From positions 806,001 to 870,000 of the forward strand of contig NZ_CP007264.1 in assembly GCF_000585495.1 (NCBI RefSeq): 64,000 nt of DNA, read 5' to 3'. The stretch is from Thermococcus nautili (GTDB lineage Archaea; Methanobacteriota_B; Thermococci; Thermococcales; Thermococcaceae). The position numbers and the translations under genes are program-made. Below are positions 2,289 through 45,660 of the stretch, in pieces (within the stretch, counting starts at the first letter, position 1; every line of letters begins with the position of its first letter). The notes below the pieces were generated by a model. That model was not told the DNA's origin and ran no database searches. It was given only the letters and a program-made list of their open reading frames with translations.

Positions 2289-3560
2289 TCATTCAAACCC
2301 ACTAAAAAGCGGGCTCTCAGCCCCTCGGGGAGGGCCTTCCCCCCGGTTACCCCTACCTCCCGATAAGGCCGGAAGGCTCGGGGTTATGGTTTTTATAGCC
2401 TTCCTCAAAATATTAAACGCTCCAACCAAATCCGCGTTAAAGACAAGCCCCGTCGCGGGACACAAATAAAGACCACGAACAAAACGAGCCCCCTCGTGGG
2501 GCCTCCCGCAAACGGGACAAGTTTTCGAAGTGAAAGCCTCATCAACGAGCTCAACCTGAACACCATACTCCTCAGCAACTTCCGTCAAGCGTTTGATAAC
2601 GTAATTAAACCGCCAAACGCGAGAGAGGAGAAAATTCTGCTTTTTACCCCTATCAGAATTCCGAGCTATGCCCTTAGGATAGCCAATCACGATTTTAGAA
2701 ACGCCCAACTCGTAGAGTTTCCGGACAGTCTGCCTGACTGCTGTGTTAATGTAGTGTTTGGCCTGAAGTTTCGCCTTCTCGTGCATTCTCTTGAGTTTCC
2801 TACTCGTCTTGACCCCACTCTTGTTGAGTTTTGACTGGTAATCGGCAATCCTCTTCCTCCAGTAGAAGTCAATACTCTTTAGTGGTCTCCCGTTCACGAG
2901 AAAGCTTTCTCCATTCTCAACGTAAACGGCCATTAAATTGTTCACTCCTAAGTCAATGCCAGCCAAGAGGCTTCCTTTAGGTTGCCTTGGGATGCTCACC
3001 CATTCTTCGCCCTCAAGTTTCTCCCCAACAGTAAGGTTGACGTGAGCATACCACTTCCACCTAACAGGGTCGTAGGTTATCTCTAAGCGCCCCTGCCTGC
3101 CCTTCAGGTGAATTCTTCCTTTGAATTGGATTTCCAAGCGTTTGAATTCCCCAATGCCTTTGAGAATTAGTTTGTTGCCCTCAATCCTGTACTGGTCGTT
3201 CCGGAGGACGATTAAGGGTTTTCTCTTTCCGTCCTCCTTCAGGTAGTTTGGTAGTTTGGGTTTAAGCCAGTCTGGTAGTTCACCATTCCTCTTCTTCCGA
3301 AGGAGGGAGAAGAACGAACGCCAAGCTTCAGCGTTCTTCCTGCAAATTTGCTGGACTGTGGCTGAGCCAATTTCCCGTTTAAACTCTTCATAAACGGTTT
3401 TCTCTGTTGAATTAAAGTCTACGATTCGCTCTTGGAAGTATTGCCATTTTCTCAGGTAGTTTACTCGGTTCCATGCTTTGGCTCCAAGGTCGGCTAACTG
3501 GTGGAGGATTTTTGCTTGTTCTTTTGAGGGTTGGAGTTTTAGCGTTACCGTTCGCTTCAT
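2289..3560 (-). CDS. tnpB: TnpB-family RNA-guided endonuclease
   Basis: 423 residues: N-terminal OrfB helix-turn-helix/wedge region (about 1-190), then a RuvC-like domain with GIDLGVNN (catalytic Asp203) and a C-terminal NADLVGAFNI (Asp377). The usual RuvC-II glutamate position reads IVIGYPKG, with Gly293 instead of Glu. A glutamate appears at 341 in VDEAFTSKTCP. The zinc ribbon has C348, C351 and C367, but the fourth ligand is Thr370. The last 30 residues are glycine/proline rich and overlap right-end DNA. The family cuts DNA next to a target motif guided by an omega-RNA. The ATG has no SD; a TATA-like CTATTTTAAAGCC at 3587-3599 suggests a very short leader. Confidence 0.88.
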   Translation of the reverse strand: MKRTVTLKLQPSKEQAKILHQLADLGAKAWNRVNYLRKWQYFQERIVDFNSTEKTVYEEFKREIGSATVQQICRKNAEAWRSFFSLLRKKRNGELPDWLKPKLPNYLKEDGKRKPLIVLRNDQYRIEGNKLILKGIGEFKRLEIQFKGRIHLKGRQGRLEITYDPVRWKWYAHVNLTVGEKLEGEEWVSIPRQPKGSLLAGIDLGVNNLMAVYVENGESFLVNGRPLKSIDFYWRKRIADYQSKLNKSGVKTSRKLKRMHEKAKLQAKHYINTAVRQTVRKLYELGVSKIVIGYPKGIARNSDRGKKQNFLLSRVWRFNYVIKRLTEVAEEYGVQVELVDEAFTSKTCPVCGRPHEGARFVRGLYLCPATGLVFNADLVGAFNILRKAIKTITPSLPALSGGRGNRGEGPPRGAESPLFSGFE

Positions 3561-5470: not shown

Positions 5471-5517
5471 TTTCAAACACCTCCAGTTTTTGGTCTAGTC
5501 TCGTTGACTAGGACGGC

Positions 5518-5532
5518 TTTTTAAATCTTTCG
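5518..5532 (-). promoter_or_regulatory. BRE/TATA promoter of EF-1alpha-S10
   Basis: On the minus strand CGAAAGATTTAAAAA combines a purine-rich BRE (5527-5532) with a TATA element (5518-5527). It stands about 50 bases ahead of the EF-1alpha ATG, leaving a leader of about 25 nt that contains the SD. Confidence 0.7.
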
Positions 5533-5590
5533 AACCTCGGTCCCCTCGGGCGGGGAACCCGCCGTTTACGGGGGGACCTCATGAGTTCCG
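5530..5590 (-). ncRNA. Candidate small structured RNA between EF-2 and EF-1alpha
   Basis: A GC-rich island in AT-rich intergenic DNA. An outer stem pairs 5539-5545 (GGTCCCC) with 5572-5578 (GGGGACC). An inner stem pairs GGCGGG (5549-5554) with CCCGCC (5558-5563) around a GAA loop. On the minus strand a TATA-like ACTTTTTAAACTC (5605-5617) lies about 25-30 bases upstream, which would start a transcript near 5585. GC-rich islands of this kind led to the hgc RNAs of Pyrococcus; membership in such a family is possible but unverified. Strand is inferred from the TATA only. Confidence 0.42.
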
Positions 5591-39948: not shown

Positions 39949-40096
39949 ACCCATCACCGTTTTATTCTTTGAAAGAAGTCCTATAAAACCTTTTTCATGA
40001 GCGGGGATTATCGGCCTTCGTCAAAAATATTCCCGACAGTTATCGAACTTCGTTAGATTTTTATCTCAGCGCTTCTACATTCCTCTGGTGATTGCC

Positions 40097-40942
40097 ATGA
40101 GGGCCTTCATTTCTCTCGACCTTGAAGGGCTGCCCTATATCGTCAGCAGGGAGAACCTCTTCGTAAAGGGCGCCCTCTACGCGGAAGCGAGGAAGATAGC
40201 GACCGAGGTTGTAAGGGTCGTCGCTGAGACGCTCCACCATGAGCTCGGGGTTGACGAGGTCGTCATAGCGGACAGCCACGGCCCGATGGTTAACATCCTC
40301 GTGGACGAAACGCCGGACTACGTCAGGCTCGTCCGGGGCTTTCCGAGGCCGCTGAGCATGGTCGCCGGGGCGAAGGGCTCGGACTTCGCAATCTTCCTCG
40401 GCTACCACGCCAAGGCCGGAACCGGCCACGCTACGTTCGACCACACCTACAGCGGTGCAACCGTTGACAGGCTTGAGATAAACGGCGTCGAGGTCAGCGA
40501 GACCCTTTTGAACGCCTACCTGCTCGGCGAGTGGAACGTTCCGGTTGCGATGGTCGCCGGAGACAAAGCGCTGATAGAAACGGACGTGAAGACTCACCTC
40601 CCCTGGGCGGTCGGTGTTCCCCTGAAGGAGAGCCTTGGTAGGTACTCGGCAGTGAGCCCCGGAATGGAAGGGATAAAGAAGCTCCTCCGCGAAGGAACCG
40701 TTGAAGCCTTCAGGCGCGTCGAGCGCGGTGAGGTTAGGCCACTGAAAACCGAGAGGCCGGTTGAGGTCAAGCTCCGCTTCCTCAACAGCGCCTACGCGGA
40801 AGTCGCCGAGCTACTGCCCTTCGTCGAGAGGCTCGACGGGAAGACCGTTCGCTTCGAGGCGGGAAGCGTTGAAGAGGCCTACAAGACCTTTGAAGTTCTC
40901 ATCCTTGCGGCCGCGGGGGTCAGCTCGATAGTGAACCGCTAA
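40097..40942 (+). CDS. M55-family D-aminopeptidase (DppA-like)
   Basis: 281 residues from the ATG at 40097 (SD GGTGATT). Zinc-ligand motifs of the M55 family are visible: FISLDLEGLP (Asp, Glu), IADSHGPM, and LGYHAKAGTGHATFDHTYSG with the His residues. The family hydrolyses D-amino-acid peptides as a self-compartmentalised decamer. The gene ends 31 bases before the H/ACA RNA. Confidence 0.9.
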   Translation: MRAFISLDLEGLPYIVSRENLFVKGALYAEARKIATEVVRVVAETLHHELGVDEVVIADSHGPMVNILVDETPDYVRLVRGFPRPLSMVAGAKGSDFAIFLGYHAKAGTGHATFDHTYSGATVDRLEINGVEVSETLLNAYLLGEWNVPVAMVAGDKALIETDVKTHLPWAVGVPLKESLGRYSAVSPGMEGIKKLLREGTVEAFRRVERGEVRPLKTERPVEVKLRFLNSAYAEVAELLPFVERLDGKTVRFEAGSVEEAYKTFEVLILAAAGVSSIVNR

Positions 40943-40972: not shown

Positions 40973-41044
40973 GCCCCCGGGAAACCGCGGGGGATGAGCG
41001 CCTCGGCGAGCCGTGAGTCCCCTTCGCTCCCCGGGGGCACAACC
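40973..41044 (+). ncRNA. H/ACA guide sRNA for 16S rRNA pseudouridylation
   Basis: Basal stem GCCCCCGGG (40973-40981) pairs perfectly with CCCGGGGGC (41030-41038), followed at once by the ACA box (41039-41041). An upper stem GGGGA/TCCCC carries UGA...GUGA elements as in archaeal K-turns. The last upper-stem base lies 16 nt from ACA, as the family requires. The pocket strands AAACCGC and CGCTC are complementary to GCGGUUU and GAGCG, the highly conserved 16S stretch around GAGCxUGCGGUUU. The pocket matches my memory of the Pyrococcus furiosus Pf9 guide RNA. Not in any reading frame. Confidence 0.88.
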
Positions 41045-42100
41045 ACAAACTTCGCCTGCGCGAAGTTTGACCAAGGTCGGTAGCTCCTTATTTCAGAGTT
41101 AACTTTTGAGGGATTTTTCTCGTCAGTTGGCAGTTTTGAGTGGGAGAACTTATGACGCTACTTCTTGGTGTGAAGGGTTTAACTTTAAACCGACGCCCGA
41201 AGGGCGTCAAAAGAGAGTAAACCCTTTCAGAGGGTTATTTTGACTGGTTCTCTCCTAGAAAGCTCGATTTTCCCAGTAAAATCCGCTCTATTTGAGCCTT
41301 TGAGCGAGAGCTACTAACTTTTGGTGAAGCTTTTTTCAAAAGCTTCCTTCGCAAGCGCTGGCGGAGAAACTTTTCTTGTGAAAAGTTTCATCAAAAGCCG
41401 GCATGATTTTAAAAGGGTTCATTTTCAGGCAGGTTTGCTCTTAAATTTGCTATTCTCAAGCGTGTTTCTTCCATTAGCGCACTTCGGGCGCTGTTTTAAA
41501 TTAAACACCTTTCCCAAGAGCCCTTATTAAAGCAAGCTCAAAACCAACGGGTTACTTGGGAAGGCATGCACTCTATCCTTGCCCCCCTGTGAGGGTTTAA
41601 CACTTTTGGTCAAGCTTTTCCCAAAAGCTTGCTTGCGAGTGTTCAATTCTTTAAACGGCGTCCTTCGGACGCCAATAGCAAAGTTGGAACTGCTTGAAAA
41701 GCCTTGTTTGGTGTTAAACCCGCTCTAAACTTGCACTCGGCCAGTGCACGACTGACTTTTTGCCTATGAGTAAGAAGGACACTCTTTGGTCAAGCTTTGT
41801 TAAAGCTTGTTCGTCTGCGCGAAGTTTCATCAAAGTTTGTGATTCCTTTTGAAAAGGCAGATTTGGGAAGTTTTGGCTTCTTTAAACCCAAAATTCCTTT
41901 TCCGGGGCAGATGTCAGAGATTCGCTCTAGGGGCGTACTTTTAAAGTGGGCTAACACCGCATCGGTTGCATTTTAAAGTGAGCTCAGGGTTCCAATGAAA
42001 CTCAGACAAACAAAATTCCCAACACAATGTACATGAAAGTTCGCTCAAGTTAACGAATGGACTTAACTCCCCCAGTTTTGTCAAATGTACCCCTTTTCGA
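41045..42100. repeat. Gene-free region with dispersed hairpin repeats
   Basis: About 1 kb without a convincing gene. A degenerate unit, ACTTTTGGTCAAGC followed by a self-complementary AAGCTTTT/AAAAGCTT hairpin, recurs near 41317-41347, 41600-41632 and 41779-41809. Companion elements of the type AAGTTTCATCAAAG recur at 41384-41397 and 41822-41835, with related hairpins at 41047-41068 and 41368-41389. Other inverted repeats include GACGCCC-GAA-GGGCGTC (41192-41208) inside AAGGGTTTA/TAAACCCTT arms, and GGCGTCC-TTC-GGACGCC (near 41657-41673). Base composition is AT-richer than neighbours. Function unknown. Confidence 0.6.
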
Positions 42101-42102
42101 AG

Positions 42103-42112
42103 CCCTTATATT
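42103..42112 (+). promoter_or_regulatory. TATA box of AOR-family gene
   Basis: CCTTATATTC about 40 bases before the ATG at 42146; the leader would hold the SD GAGGTGG. Confidence 0.5.
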
Positions 42113-42145
42113 CTCCTTCCCGAAAAATCTTCGAGGTGGTATCGT

Positions 42146-44047
42146 ATGGAAGCCAAGGGTGGCTATTGGGGAAAGATTCTGAGGGTCAACCTGACGACAG
42201 GAGAGATTAAGGTCGAACCCCTTCCAGAGGAGTTCCCGAGGAAATACCTCGGCGGCGTTGGATTTGGAACGAGACTTCTCTACGACGAAGTTCCCGCGAA
42301 GGCAGACCCGCTCGGACCCGAGAACAAGATGATTATAACCCCTGGTCTCTTCGTTGGCACCGGAATCGGAACCGGTTCCAAGACGGCGTTCAACTTCAAG
42401 AGCCCGCTCACCGGCGGTTACGGCCGTTCGATGGCTGGCGCCAAGATGGGTGAGGAGCTCAAGAAAGCCGGTTACGACGTTCTCATAATCGAGGGGCAGA
42501 GCGAGGAGCCCGTTCTTCTCTACATCAAGGATGATGAGGTCAAGCTCGTTCCGGCTAACGAGTACTGGGGCCTCACCACCGGCGAGGCGAGAAAGAAGGC
42601 CAAGGAGGAGTATCCGGGCTTTGCGACCGCCTTCATCGGTCCGGCCGGCGAGAACCTCAGCCTCATCGCGACGATAGACACCGATGAGAGGCAGGCCGGT
42701 AGGGGCGGTCCAGGTGCAGTTCTCGGAAGCAAGAAGCTCAAGGGAATCGTCGTCAAGGGAACTAAGAAGATACCGATTGCCGAGCCCGAGAAGCTCCGCG
42801 AGCTCATAAAGAAGTGGGCAATGATATTCAAGGACCACCCAGCGACCAAGGCCGACATGGATTACGGAAGCGGTGAGTTCCTCGACTGGATGAACAGGGA
42901 GAGGGGAACCTTCCCGACCAGGAACTGGCAGATGGGCTTCTTCAAGAAGGCATACGAGAAGGCCAAGGAGGAGGGCAGGGAGCACATCTACATCGACCCC
43001 TACTACTGGGCACCCAAGTACCGCGCCGGCAGGAGGCCGTGCCCGCTCTGTAACAAGCCGTGCAGCCAGTACGTTAAGGTCGAGAGCGAGAAGTGGGGCA
43101 CCTTTATGACCGACGGTCCGGAGTACGAGACCCTCTACTCCTTCGGCGGAGCCCTTGAGCTCGACGACTTCGAGACCGTTGCCTACCTCAACTACCTCGC
43201 CGACGAGCTTGGACTCGACACCATCTCAGCCGGTGTAACAATCGCCTGGGCCATGGAGGCCTACGAGAGGGGCCTCCTCACCAAGGAAGAGGCGGACGGC
43301 CTTGAGCTGACCTTCGGCAACGGCGAGGCGGCGGTTGAGGCGCTCAAGAAGATGGCCTACCGCGAGGGCAACCTCGGAAAGCTTCTCGCCGACGGTGTCA
43401 AGAGGGCCAGCGAGAGGCTCGGCAGGGGAAGCGAGAAGTTCGCGCTCCACGTCAAGGGCATGGAGCCACCTGCCTACGACGTCCGTGGTATAAAGGGAAT
43501 GGCACTTGCCTTCGCGGTCAACGTCCGCGGCGCCGACCACCTCACCAGCGGTGCCTACGGAACCGAGCTCGTCGGCAAGTGGTGGAAGTTCGAGGGTGTT
43601 GACAGGACCAAGGGCGAGAACAAGGGCTTTGAGATTGCCTTCCACGAGAACCTCATGGCAATCTACGACGCCACCGGCGTCTGTAAGTTCTCAAGGCACA
43701 TGTACTTCCTTGAGGGCTTCCCGGAGCTCGTTGAGGCCGTCACCGGCATGAACATCGGAGAGGCCGAGCTGATGGTCATCGGCGAGAGGATAATGAACAT
43801 CGCTCGCGCCTTCAACGTCCGCGAGGGCTTCACCAGGAAGGACGACACCCTGCCTTACAGGATTATGTGGGAGCCGATTCCGGAGGGACCGAGCAAGGGC
43901 CTCCACGTCCCGCCCTGGGAGCTCGATAGGATGCTCGACGAGTACTACCAGGCTCGCGGATGGAGCAGGGACGGAATCCCGACCAAGGCCAAGCTCATGG
44001 CCCTCGACCTGCCGGACATCGCGGACGACATCGGAGCGGGAATCTGA
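42146..44047 (+). CDS. Tungsten-dependent aldehyde:ferredoxin oxidoreductase family enzyme
   Basis: 633 residues, homologous throughout to AOR: N-terminal GYWGKILRVNLTTGEIKVE, YLGGVGFGTRLLY, KSPLTGGYGRSM. Fe-S ligands are CPLCNKPC (about 294-301) with a distal Cys in ATGVCKFSRH. Pterin-binding segments include DELGLDTISAG and DATGVC, and the ending RGWSRDGIP is typical. The enzyme oxidises an aldehyde to an acid, reducing ferredoxin, with bis-tungstopterin. Which paralogue (AOR, FOR, WOR4, WOR5) cannot be fixed by eye. Strong codon bias suggests high expression. Confidence 0.92.
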   Translation: MEAKGGYWGKILRVNLTTGEIKVEPLPEEFPRKYLGGVGFGTRLLYDEVPAKADPLGPENKMIITPGLFVGTGIGTGSKTAFNFKSPLTGGYGRSMAGAKMGEELKKAGYDVLIIEGQSEEPVLLYIKDDEVKLVPANEYWGLTTGEARKKAKEEYPGFATAFIGPAGENLSLIATIDTDERQAGRGGPGAVLGSKKLKGIVVKGTKKIPIAEPEKLRELIKKWAMIFKDHPATKADMDYGSGEFLDWMNRERGTFPTRNWQMGFFKKAYEKAKEEGREHIYIDPYYWAPKYRAGRRPCPLCNKPCSQYVKVESEKWGTFMTDGPEYETLYSFGGALELDDFETVAYLNYLADELGLDTISAGVTIAWAMEAYERGLLTKEEADGLELTFGNGEAAVEALKKMAYREGNLGKLLADGVKRASERLGRGSEKFALHVKGMEPPAYDVRGIKGMALAFAVNVRGADHLTSGAYGTELVGKWWKFEGVDRTKGENKGFEIAFHENLMAIYDATGVCKFSRHMYFLEGFPELVEAVTGMNIGEAELMVIGERIMNIARAFNVREGFTRKDDTLPYRIMWEPIPEGPSKGLHVPPWELDRMLDEYYQARGWSRDGIPTKAKLMALDLPDIADDIGAGI

Positions 44048-45603: not shown

Positions 45604-45660
45604 CGCGGATGACGACCCTTGCCCAGTCTGAACTGTGATGACGTCGGTATTAGCTGACGC
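45604..45660 (+). ncRNA. Box C/D guide sRNA
   Basis: In order: a short terminal stem GCG/CGC, a slightly deviant C box CGGATGA (45606-45612), a 15-nt guide, D' CTGA (45628-45631), a 3-nt spacer, C' GTGATGA (45635-45641), a 12-nt guide and D CTGA (45654-45657). Guide and spacer lengths are canonical for archaeal C/D sRNAs that direct 2'-O-methylation. The D guide would pair with CTAATACCGACG and the D' guide with ACTGGGCAAGGGTCG; targets not identified. Confidence 0.82.

What the first reader, a model, noticed from the sequence alone, without database searches (positions are those of the whole stretch)
41045..42100. One kilobase of gene-free DNA with repeated hairpin modules
In a gene-dense genome this stretch has no plausible gene but at least three copies of a TTTGGTCAAGC-type hairpin unit, related AAGTTTCATCAAAG pieces and several perfect GC hairpins in AT-rich arms. 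It may be a set of small RNAs, a protein-binding chromosome site, decayed mobile DNA, or a long leader or trailer of flanking genes.
Basis: seen in the sequence. Interest (0 to 1): 0.6.

Follow-up and report, generated by a model that had tools for sequence, protein, structure and literature searches.

The report
Palindrome arrays at tRNA 3' ends
This gene-free kilobase is one copy of an apparently undescribed family of modular, palindrome-rich DNA repeats that start almost exactly where tRNAs and other stable RNAs end in Thermococcus archaea, and these arrays mark places where the chromosomes of these species have been broken and rejoined.

Summary
Window 41045-41853 is a mosaic of fixed-length, dyad-symmetric modules (A 270 bp, B 235 bp, truncated C, remnant D) joined by short hairpins, starting 3 bp after the H/ACA RNA Pab160. 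The genome (size and a primer match fit T. nautili) has over 20 such arrays; about 22 tRNA-type 3' ends and the C/D RNA sR47 carry one. A tRNA-CCA-hairpin pattern occurs in 58 of 61 genomes of the genus, never in its reversed control; eight Pyrococcus genomes lack the hairpin-box site.

Between species about 91% identical, mostly the same tRNAs stay occupied, but modules swap and downstream synteny breaks: 30/48 comparisons with arrays in both genomes, 19/67 without (p=0.0003); upstream synteny is kept equally. Arrays lie at both published T. onnurineus/T. sp. 4557 inversions. The homologous block of a published laboratory inversion between two T. nautili tRNA-Gly genes runs into the array. 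The window array itself is split by a rearrangement in a relative.

Best reading: a repeat family of probable mobile origin, anchored at RNA 3' ends, supplying homology for Thermococcus chromosome shuffling. How it inserts, and whether it causes or merely tolerates breakage, is unproven. No paper describing it was found.

The parts
40973..41041 (+). Pab160 H/ACA guide RNA gene; the array begins 3 bp after its 3' end
   Evidence: Rfam RF02796, 93 bits, gathering score 47.4
41045..41069 (.). terminal hairpin ACAAACTTCGCCTGCGCGAAGTTTG, the end type that follows CCA of several tRNAs
   Evidence: exact position; same end after tRNAs
41063..41332 (.). module A, 270 bp from box AAGTTTGACCAA to inverted box TTGGTGAAGCTT; core stem 41192-41208
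   Evidence: 72-80% identical copies at ten sites of the genome
41327..41345 (.). hairpin AAGCTTTTTTCAAAAGCTT at the right end of module A
41353..41366 (.). AAGCGCTGGCGGAG, fragment of the CAGCCC...GCTGGCGG end type (C module end)
41367..41388 (.). hairpin AAACTTTTCTTGTGAAAAGTTT at the left end of module B
41383..41617 (.). module B, 235 bp from box to inverted box; core stem 41476-41492
   Evidence: 83% copy at G000:10504-10641, 79-87% copies in G005
41612..41630 (.). hairpin AAGCTTTTCCCAAAAGCTT at the right end of module B
41631..41797 (.). truncated module C; core stem 41657-41673, right box 41786-41797
   Evidence: 89% copy at G000:10898-11048
41792..41808 (.). hairpin AAGCTTTGTTAAAGCTT at the right end of C
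41814..41853 (.). half hairpin, box and start of a D module (GTGATTCC); the rest of D is unrecognisable
   Evidence: fused to the 41045 hairpin in G065
42026..42145 (+). conserved leader of the AOR gene, not part of the array
   Evidence: shared with G049, G033, G036, which lack or differ in the array

Best explanation
The stretch is one array of a dispersed, modular, dyad-symmetric repeat family of Thermococcus, probably of mobile origin. Shown: arrays begin almost exactly at the mature 3' ends of tRNA genes and of two guide RNAs; modules have fixed length and nested inverted symmetry; arrays turn over between close species while the tRNA and its upstream side stay put; arrays are junctions at which downstream flanks have been exchanged. 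Inferred: ectopic recombination between arrays, with or without the adjacent tRNA, by homologous recombination or by the low-specificity integrase reaction of Cossu et al. 2017, joins one array-bearing locus to another and produces inversions. Not shown: how new arrays get to RNA 3' ends, and whether the arrays cause breakage or only tolerate it.
For: 58 of 61 genus genomes have tRNA-CCA-hairpin, reversed control 0. Junction tables. Fixed unit length. Symmetry z about 5 for A and D. Downstream synteny lost 30/48 with arrays in both genomes versus 19/67 without, p=0.0003; upstream no difference. Partner swaps Lys/Pro to Gly/Pro, Val-cac flank to Lys, Thr flank to Val. Window array split by a rearrangement in G036 and collapsed hairpin-to-hairpin in G065. 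Arrays at the endpoints of both published inversions, with flank exchange across them. The two tRNA-Gly genes of the published laboratory inversion share 175 bp with one mismatch, about 135 bp of it array. Eight Pyrococcus genomes without the hairpin-box site, and Thermococcus is reported to shuffle in a different mode from Pyrococcus (PMC2718504).
Against: Synteny is also lost in 19/67 comparisons without an array. 4557 Gly-tcc, a published endpoint, has no array. Three of the four laboratory inversions in T. nautili were between other paralogs, not tRNAs. Present homology between arrays is often only 70-87%, over short runs. Arrays sit where insertions and breaks are tolerated, so association is not causation. 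Comparisons are not independent, and the species names of the genomes are inferred from lengths.
Confidence: 0.55

Rival explanations
1. Active non-autonomous mobile element: the modules are cassettes moved by an unidentified enzyme that targets the 3' ends of stable RNA genes through the transcription complex or the RNA itself; recombination is a by-product.
For: Same placement after unrelated RNAs (tRNAs, H/ACA, C/D), so not DNA-sequence targeting. Presence/absence at Pab160. Array content changes between conserved flanks at Val-tac, Val-gac and Leu-tag. Spacer motifs after CCA recur at different tRNAs.
Against: No enzyme, no autonomous copy, no plasmid or phage copy, no Y1 transposase in this genome, no target duplication seen, no near-identical recent copies apart from the tRNA-Gly pair. 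Recombination between existing arrays can explain turnover.
Confidence: 0.35
2. RNA-level role: the first hairpin acts as a terminator or 3'-processing signal for the upstream RNA gene.
For: Hairpin is 1-9 nt after CCA in sense orientation; stems are compensated; occupied tRNAs mostly have no gene close downstream.
Against: About half of the tRNAs lack it, including in the same genome. Whole arrays of several hundred bp are not explained. No G-T over A-C bias in inner stems (3 against 2 of 121). Module consensus fold has little covariation. Three different end structures substitute for each other at one tRNA.
Confidence: 0.12
3. Chromatin or SMC site: arrays are bound by nucleoid proteins such as TrmBL2 or histones and organise the chromosome.
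For: AT-rich, dyad-symmetric, fixed length near 270 bp, dispersed at 20-odd sites. From memory, a 2025 study reports SMC stalling by TrmBL2 at tens of loci with special DNA structure in T. kodakarensis; not in the library.
Against: Nothing measured here; fast turnover and absence from Pyrococcus, G003 and G042 argue against an essential role.
Confidence: 0.1
4. Inert leftovers: an old repeat that survives only where insertions and chromosome breaks are harmless, downstream of isolated RNA genes, so that arrays mark tolerated breakpoints without promoting them.
For: Occupied tRNAs tend to have no gene close downstream.
Against: Length and dyad symmetry are kept at about 75% identity; partner swaps join array to array.
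Confidence: 0.2

Closest known systems
Bacterial interspersed mosaic elements (REP/BIME) and other intergenic palindromic repeats
   Same: Mosaic of short palindromic units in non-coding DNA at 3' sides of genes, dispersed, no coding capacity
   Different: Units are 235-270 bp with nested symmetry, anchored at the mature 3' end of tRNA and guide RNAs, archaeal; no REP-type Y1 transposase in the genome
[quoted passage not shown]
   Same: Short, non-coding, terminal inverted repeats, multiple copies, presence/absence differences between species
   Different: No parent transposon, no target duplication seen, arrays of different module types, RNA-3'-end placement
tRNA-associated chromosome inversions of Thermococcus catalysed by Int-pTN3 (Cossu et al. 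2017, PMC5495485)
   Same: Same tRNA loci as endpoints; the homologous block downstream of the tRNA-Gly genes is part of an array
   Different: That work assigns homology to tRNAs and other paralogs; in the passages read here it does not describe a repeat family behind the tRNAs
tRNA-targeting retrotransposons of Dictyostelium (TRE5-A, TRE3)
   Same: tRNA genes as safe havens in a compact genome, targeting independent of tRNA sequence
   Different: TREs encode their own enzymes, insert tens of bp away and are retroelements; no enzyme or RNA intermediate is shown here

Membership tests
MITE | Terminal inverted repeats and small fixed size | tested here: met
   Inward boxes with hairpins at both ends, 260-277 or about 235 bp
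MITE | Target-site duplication | tested here: inconclusive
   No empty/filled pair with both flanks alignable; at Pab160 only the left edge is exact
MITE | Ends shared with an autonomous transposon | tested here: inconclusive
   No plasmid or phage copy; the array loci of the own genome have no shared neighbouring gene besides the RNA gene, but no genome-wide search for a parent element was possible
REP/BIME (RAYT-mobilised) or IS200/IS605 derivative | Y1 (HUH) transposase available in the genome | tested here: not met
   PF01797 absent from own genome and 46 of 61 genus genomes
REP/BIME | Mosaic of palindromic units in extragenic DNA | tested here: met
   Modules A-D in varying order
Known RNA family (Rfam) | Covariance-model match inside the array | tested here: not met
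   Only Pab160, tRNAs and sR47 next to arrays
Intrinsic terminator or processing signal | Effect on RNA 3' ends | not testable with these tools
   No RNA data in reach; wobble test shows no strand bias
Remnant of a tRNA-integrated plasmid or virus | Plasmid/virus sequence and att repeat at the locus | tested here: not met
   No plasmid/phage match; real integrations move the array together with a 40-47 bp tRNA fragment
Chromatin/SMC roadblock site | Binding of TrmBL2, SMC or histone | not testable with these tools
   No ChIP data in reach

The most novel reading that the evidence does not exclude
A new class of mobile DNA in archaea: protein-free, dyad-symmetric cassettes that insert precisely at the mature 3' ends of stable RNA genes by recognising the RNA 3' end or its transcription complex rather than a DNA sequence, and that thereby drive chromosome shuffling in the genus.
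Probability: 0.25. Interest if true: 0.85.

Novelty: new variant of a known kind. Interest (0 to 1): 0.62.

Why it matters
Thermococcus chromosomes rearrange so fast that close species barely align. The literature says this could not be attributed to specific mobile elements and contrasts with few repeats (PMC2718504), or assigns it to a plasmid integrase (PMC5495485). A genus-wide repeat family sitting at the tRNA endpoints, absent from the Pyrococcus genomes tested, gives a concrete homologous substrate and makes the question testable by deletion. The precise placement at RNA 3' ends also raises the question of how a protein-free element finds them.

Tried and rejected
(1) Insertion sequence or gene fragment: no plasmid or phage match, no transposase in the array. 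(2) Known RNA family: none inside the array. (3) IS200/IS605-type mobilisation: enzyme absent from this genome. (4) One large folded RNA: consensus folding of aligned modules gave little covariation, so the symmetry is read as DNA-level. (5) The 69-aa and 59-aa ORFs in the stretch lie across module borders and were not pursued. (6) Synteny loss where only one genome is occupied (12/14) was dropped as evidence after three apparently empty tRNAs proved to be occupied by integrated elements; the first figure of 42/62 includes these. (7) TrmBL2/SMC link: the key paper is not in the library. (8) The genome contigs pattern scan returned many unrelated bacteria with hairpins behind tRNAs, so the looser pattern is not specific outside the family; the stricter pattern with reversed control was used instead.

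Full report
WHAT IS THERE. The stretch lies between the M55 D-aminopeptidase gene (40088-40942) and an aldehyde ferredoxin oxidoreductase (AOR) gene (42146-44047). It has no convincing gene and is AT-richer than its surroundings. Rfam finds the Pab160 H/ACA RNA at 40973-41041, and the repeat region starts 3 bp after it. Complete modules are bounded by two inward copies of a box AAGYTTSAYCAA, each attached to a small hairpin. Module A runs 41063-41332, B 41383-41617, a truncated C follows to 41797, and a D remnant lies at 41814-41853. A, B and C each have a central GC stem. As single-stranded DNA, 41045-41350 folds 5.5 SD better than shuffles.

A REPEAT FAMILY. Searching the whole genome with 41000-42150 gave 36 matches at about 20 sites. 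The box occurs 58 times in the genome and its reversed control never. Across fetched loci the distance between inward boxes is mostly 260-277 bp (types A, D) or 233-237 bp (type B), although copies are often only about 75% identical. A and D modules carry dyad symmetry well beyond the core (median z about 5, still 4.7-4.8 with the core removed); B is weaker (1.9).

ANCHORED AT RNA 3' ENDS. Arrays begin 1-9 nt after the CCA of tRNAs, and also after Pab160 and after the C/D RNA sR47. Three end types exist: (G)AAACTT..AAGTTTCATCAA, ACAAACTTCGC..GCGAAGTTTGACCAA, and CAGCCC..GCTGGCGG. In this genome 16 tRNA-type 3' ends carry a hairpin end (one of them is a displaced tRNA-His fragment, see below) and six more (Pro-tgg, Met, Ile, Pro-cgg, Leu-gag, Arg-cct) the third or a degenerate type; RF00005 finds 44 tRNAs and misses intron-containing ones. 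At least three arrays (L016, L018, L260) touch no known RNA gene, and that of L012 lies about 100 bp from tRNA-Gln. A pattern of tRNA 3' end, CCA and hairpin is found in 58 of 61 genomes of the genus, 0 in the reversed control. With the box added it is found in 71 of 115 genomes of the class, all in one family. Hairpin plus box is absent from eight genomes of genus g9, which I identify as Pyrococcus because their lengths equal those I know for P. abyssi, P. horikoshii, P. yayanosii and others (the identification is my inference).

DYNAMICS AT THE WINDOW LOCUS. In G033, G049 and G060 the same gene order is present but Pab160 is followed directly by about 200 bp leading to AOR, with no array. 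In G065, the closest relative by AOR identity, modules A-B-C are missing and the two outer hairpins are fused into one. In G036 the array is split: Pab160 with A and B sits at 1.61 Mb, while AOR sits at 2.15 Mb behind tRNA-Gly(ccc) followed by other modules. None of 29 further Pab160 loci looked at, in the same genus and others, has an array at this place.

DYNAMICS GENOME-WIDE. I compared the 3' flanks of orthologous tRNAs in the own genome, G036 and G049. Occupancy is 19, 16 and 20 of 43 loci, mostly at the same tRNAs, but the module behind a given tRNA differs (Leu-caa: A, C, D). Where both genomes carry an array, downstream synteny (array masked) is lost in 30/48 comparisons against 19/67 without arrays (Fisher p=0.0003); upstream synteny is lost in 5/48 against 9/67. 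Comparisons are not independent (three genomes, three pairs per locus); a per-locus count that still includes the one-occupied loci gives 17 of 21 against 8 of 22, p=0.005. Specific partner swaps were traced between own and G036: Pro-cgg faces Lys-ttt in one and Gly-tcc in the other; DNA behind Val-cac in own lies behind Lys-ttt in G036; DNA behind Thr-ggt in own lies behind Val-cac in G036. At Val-tac, Val-gac and Leu-tag both outer flanks are conserved but the array content has changed.

LINK TO PUBLISHED INVERSIONS. Cossu et al. 2017 (PMC5495485) located two inversions between T. onnurineus and T. sp. 4557 at tRNA pairs (Leu/Thr, Leu/Gly) and could not recombine Leu with Thr because the tRNAs are too dissimilar. 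G013 and G038 have exactly the lengths I know for these two species (inference), and tRNA spacings match the inversion sizes. At the corresponding tRNAs I find arrays or array remnants behind 4557 Leu-caa, Pro/Thr and Leu-tag, and behind the T. onnurineus Leu-caa, Pro, Gly-tcc and Leu-tag tRNAs; 4557 Gly-tcc has none. Unique DNA behind the 4557 Leu-caa array lies behind the T. onnurineus Pro array, and DNA behind 4557 Leu-tag lies behind T. onnurineus Gly-tcc. The 4557 Leu-caa and Pro/Thr arrays are 87% identical over 87 bp. The same paper reports a laboratory inversion in T. nautili between two tRNA-Gly genes. The published primer upstream of one of them matches this genome (it is also conserved in G036 and G049), and the two tRNA-Gly genes here differ at two tRNA positions and then share 175 bp with one mismatch, about 135 bp of it beyond the CCA. 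The own genome's size fits T. nautili 30-1 (inference from memory).

MECHANISM. Shown: placement, modularity, turnover, breakpoint association. Inferred: arrays act as dispersed homology for ectopic recombination, by RadA or by a low-specificity integrase such as Int-pTN3. Unknown: how arrays colonise new RNA 3' ends. An RNA-level role is less likely: inner stem positions show 3 G-T and 2 A-C mismatches among 121 pairs, so no strand preference. A Y1 transposase is not needed. Integrated elements at tRNA-His (own) and at Arg-ccg and Arg-tct (G036) appear to have carried the tRNA 3' fragment plus array away from the tRNA (40-47 bp near-identity), which explains some apparently empty tRNAs.

KNOWN OR NEW. 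No paper naming such a family was found in nine searches of an open-access library; the T. gammatolerans genome paper says shuffling differs from Pyrococcus and could not be attributed to specific mobile elements, and the T. kodakarensis primary-transcriptome paper does not contain the word 'repeat'. Subscription papers were not searchable, so an earlier description is possible. Structurally it resembles MITEs and BIMEs but fails or leaves open key membership tests, so I call it a new variant of a known kind.

Noticed in passing
G000:C1 about 1017088-1042473 (L024, L250): A 47-bp tRNA-His 3' fragment followed by an array lies about 25 kb from the intact tRNA-His, which suggests an integrated plasmid or virus that displaced the array.
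   Followed up: partly
G036:C1 33966-55336 and 1385935-1402892 (L287, L289, L315, L307): Two similar tRNA-Arg fragment/intact pairs, 17-21 kb apart, probably integrated elements at Arg-ccg and Arg-tct.
   Followed up: partly
window 2289-3560 (-): TnpB-like ORF (OrfB_IS605, Cas12f1-like TNB domain) just 3' of tRNA-Ser(gga), in a genome without a Y1 transposase.
   Followed up: partly
L009, L012, L018, L022: A second short GC-rich repeat (GGGGGCTCCGCCCCC and CTGTACTCTCAAACCCC-like) recurs inside or beside arrays.
   Followed up: no
G003, G042, G007, G034: Thermococcus genomes with no or few arrays; natural controls for a breakpoint test.
   Followed up: no
window 5494-5589 (-) and 45605-45660 (+): SscA RNA and a Pyrococcus-type C/D guide RNA (Rfam); no array match lies near either.
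   Followed up: no
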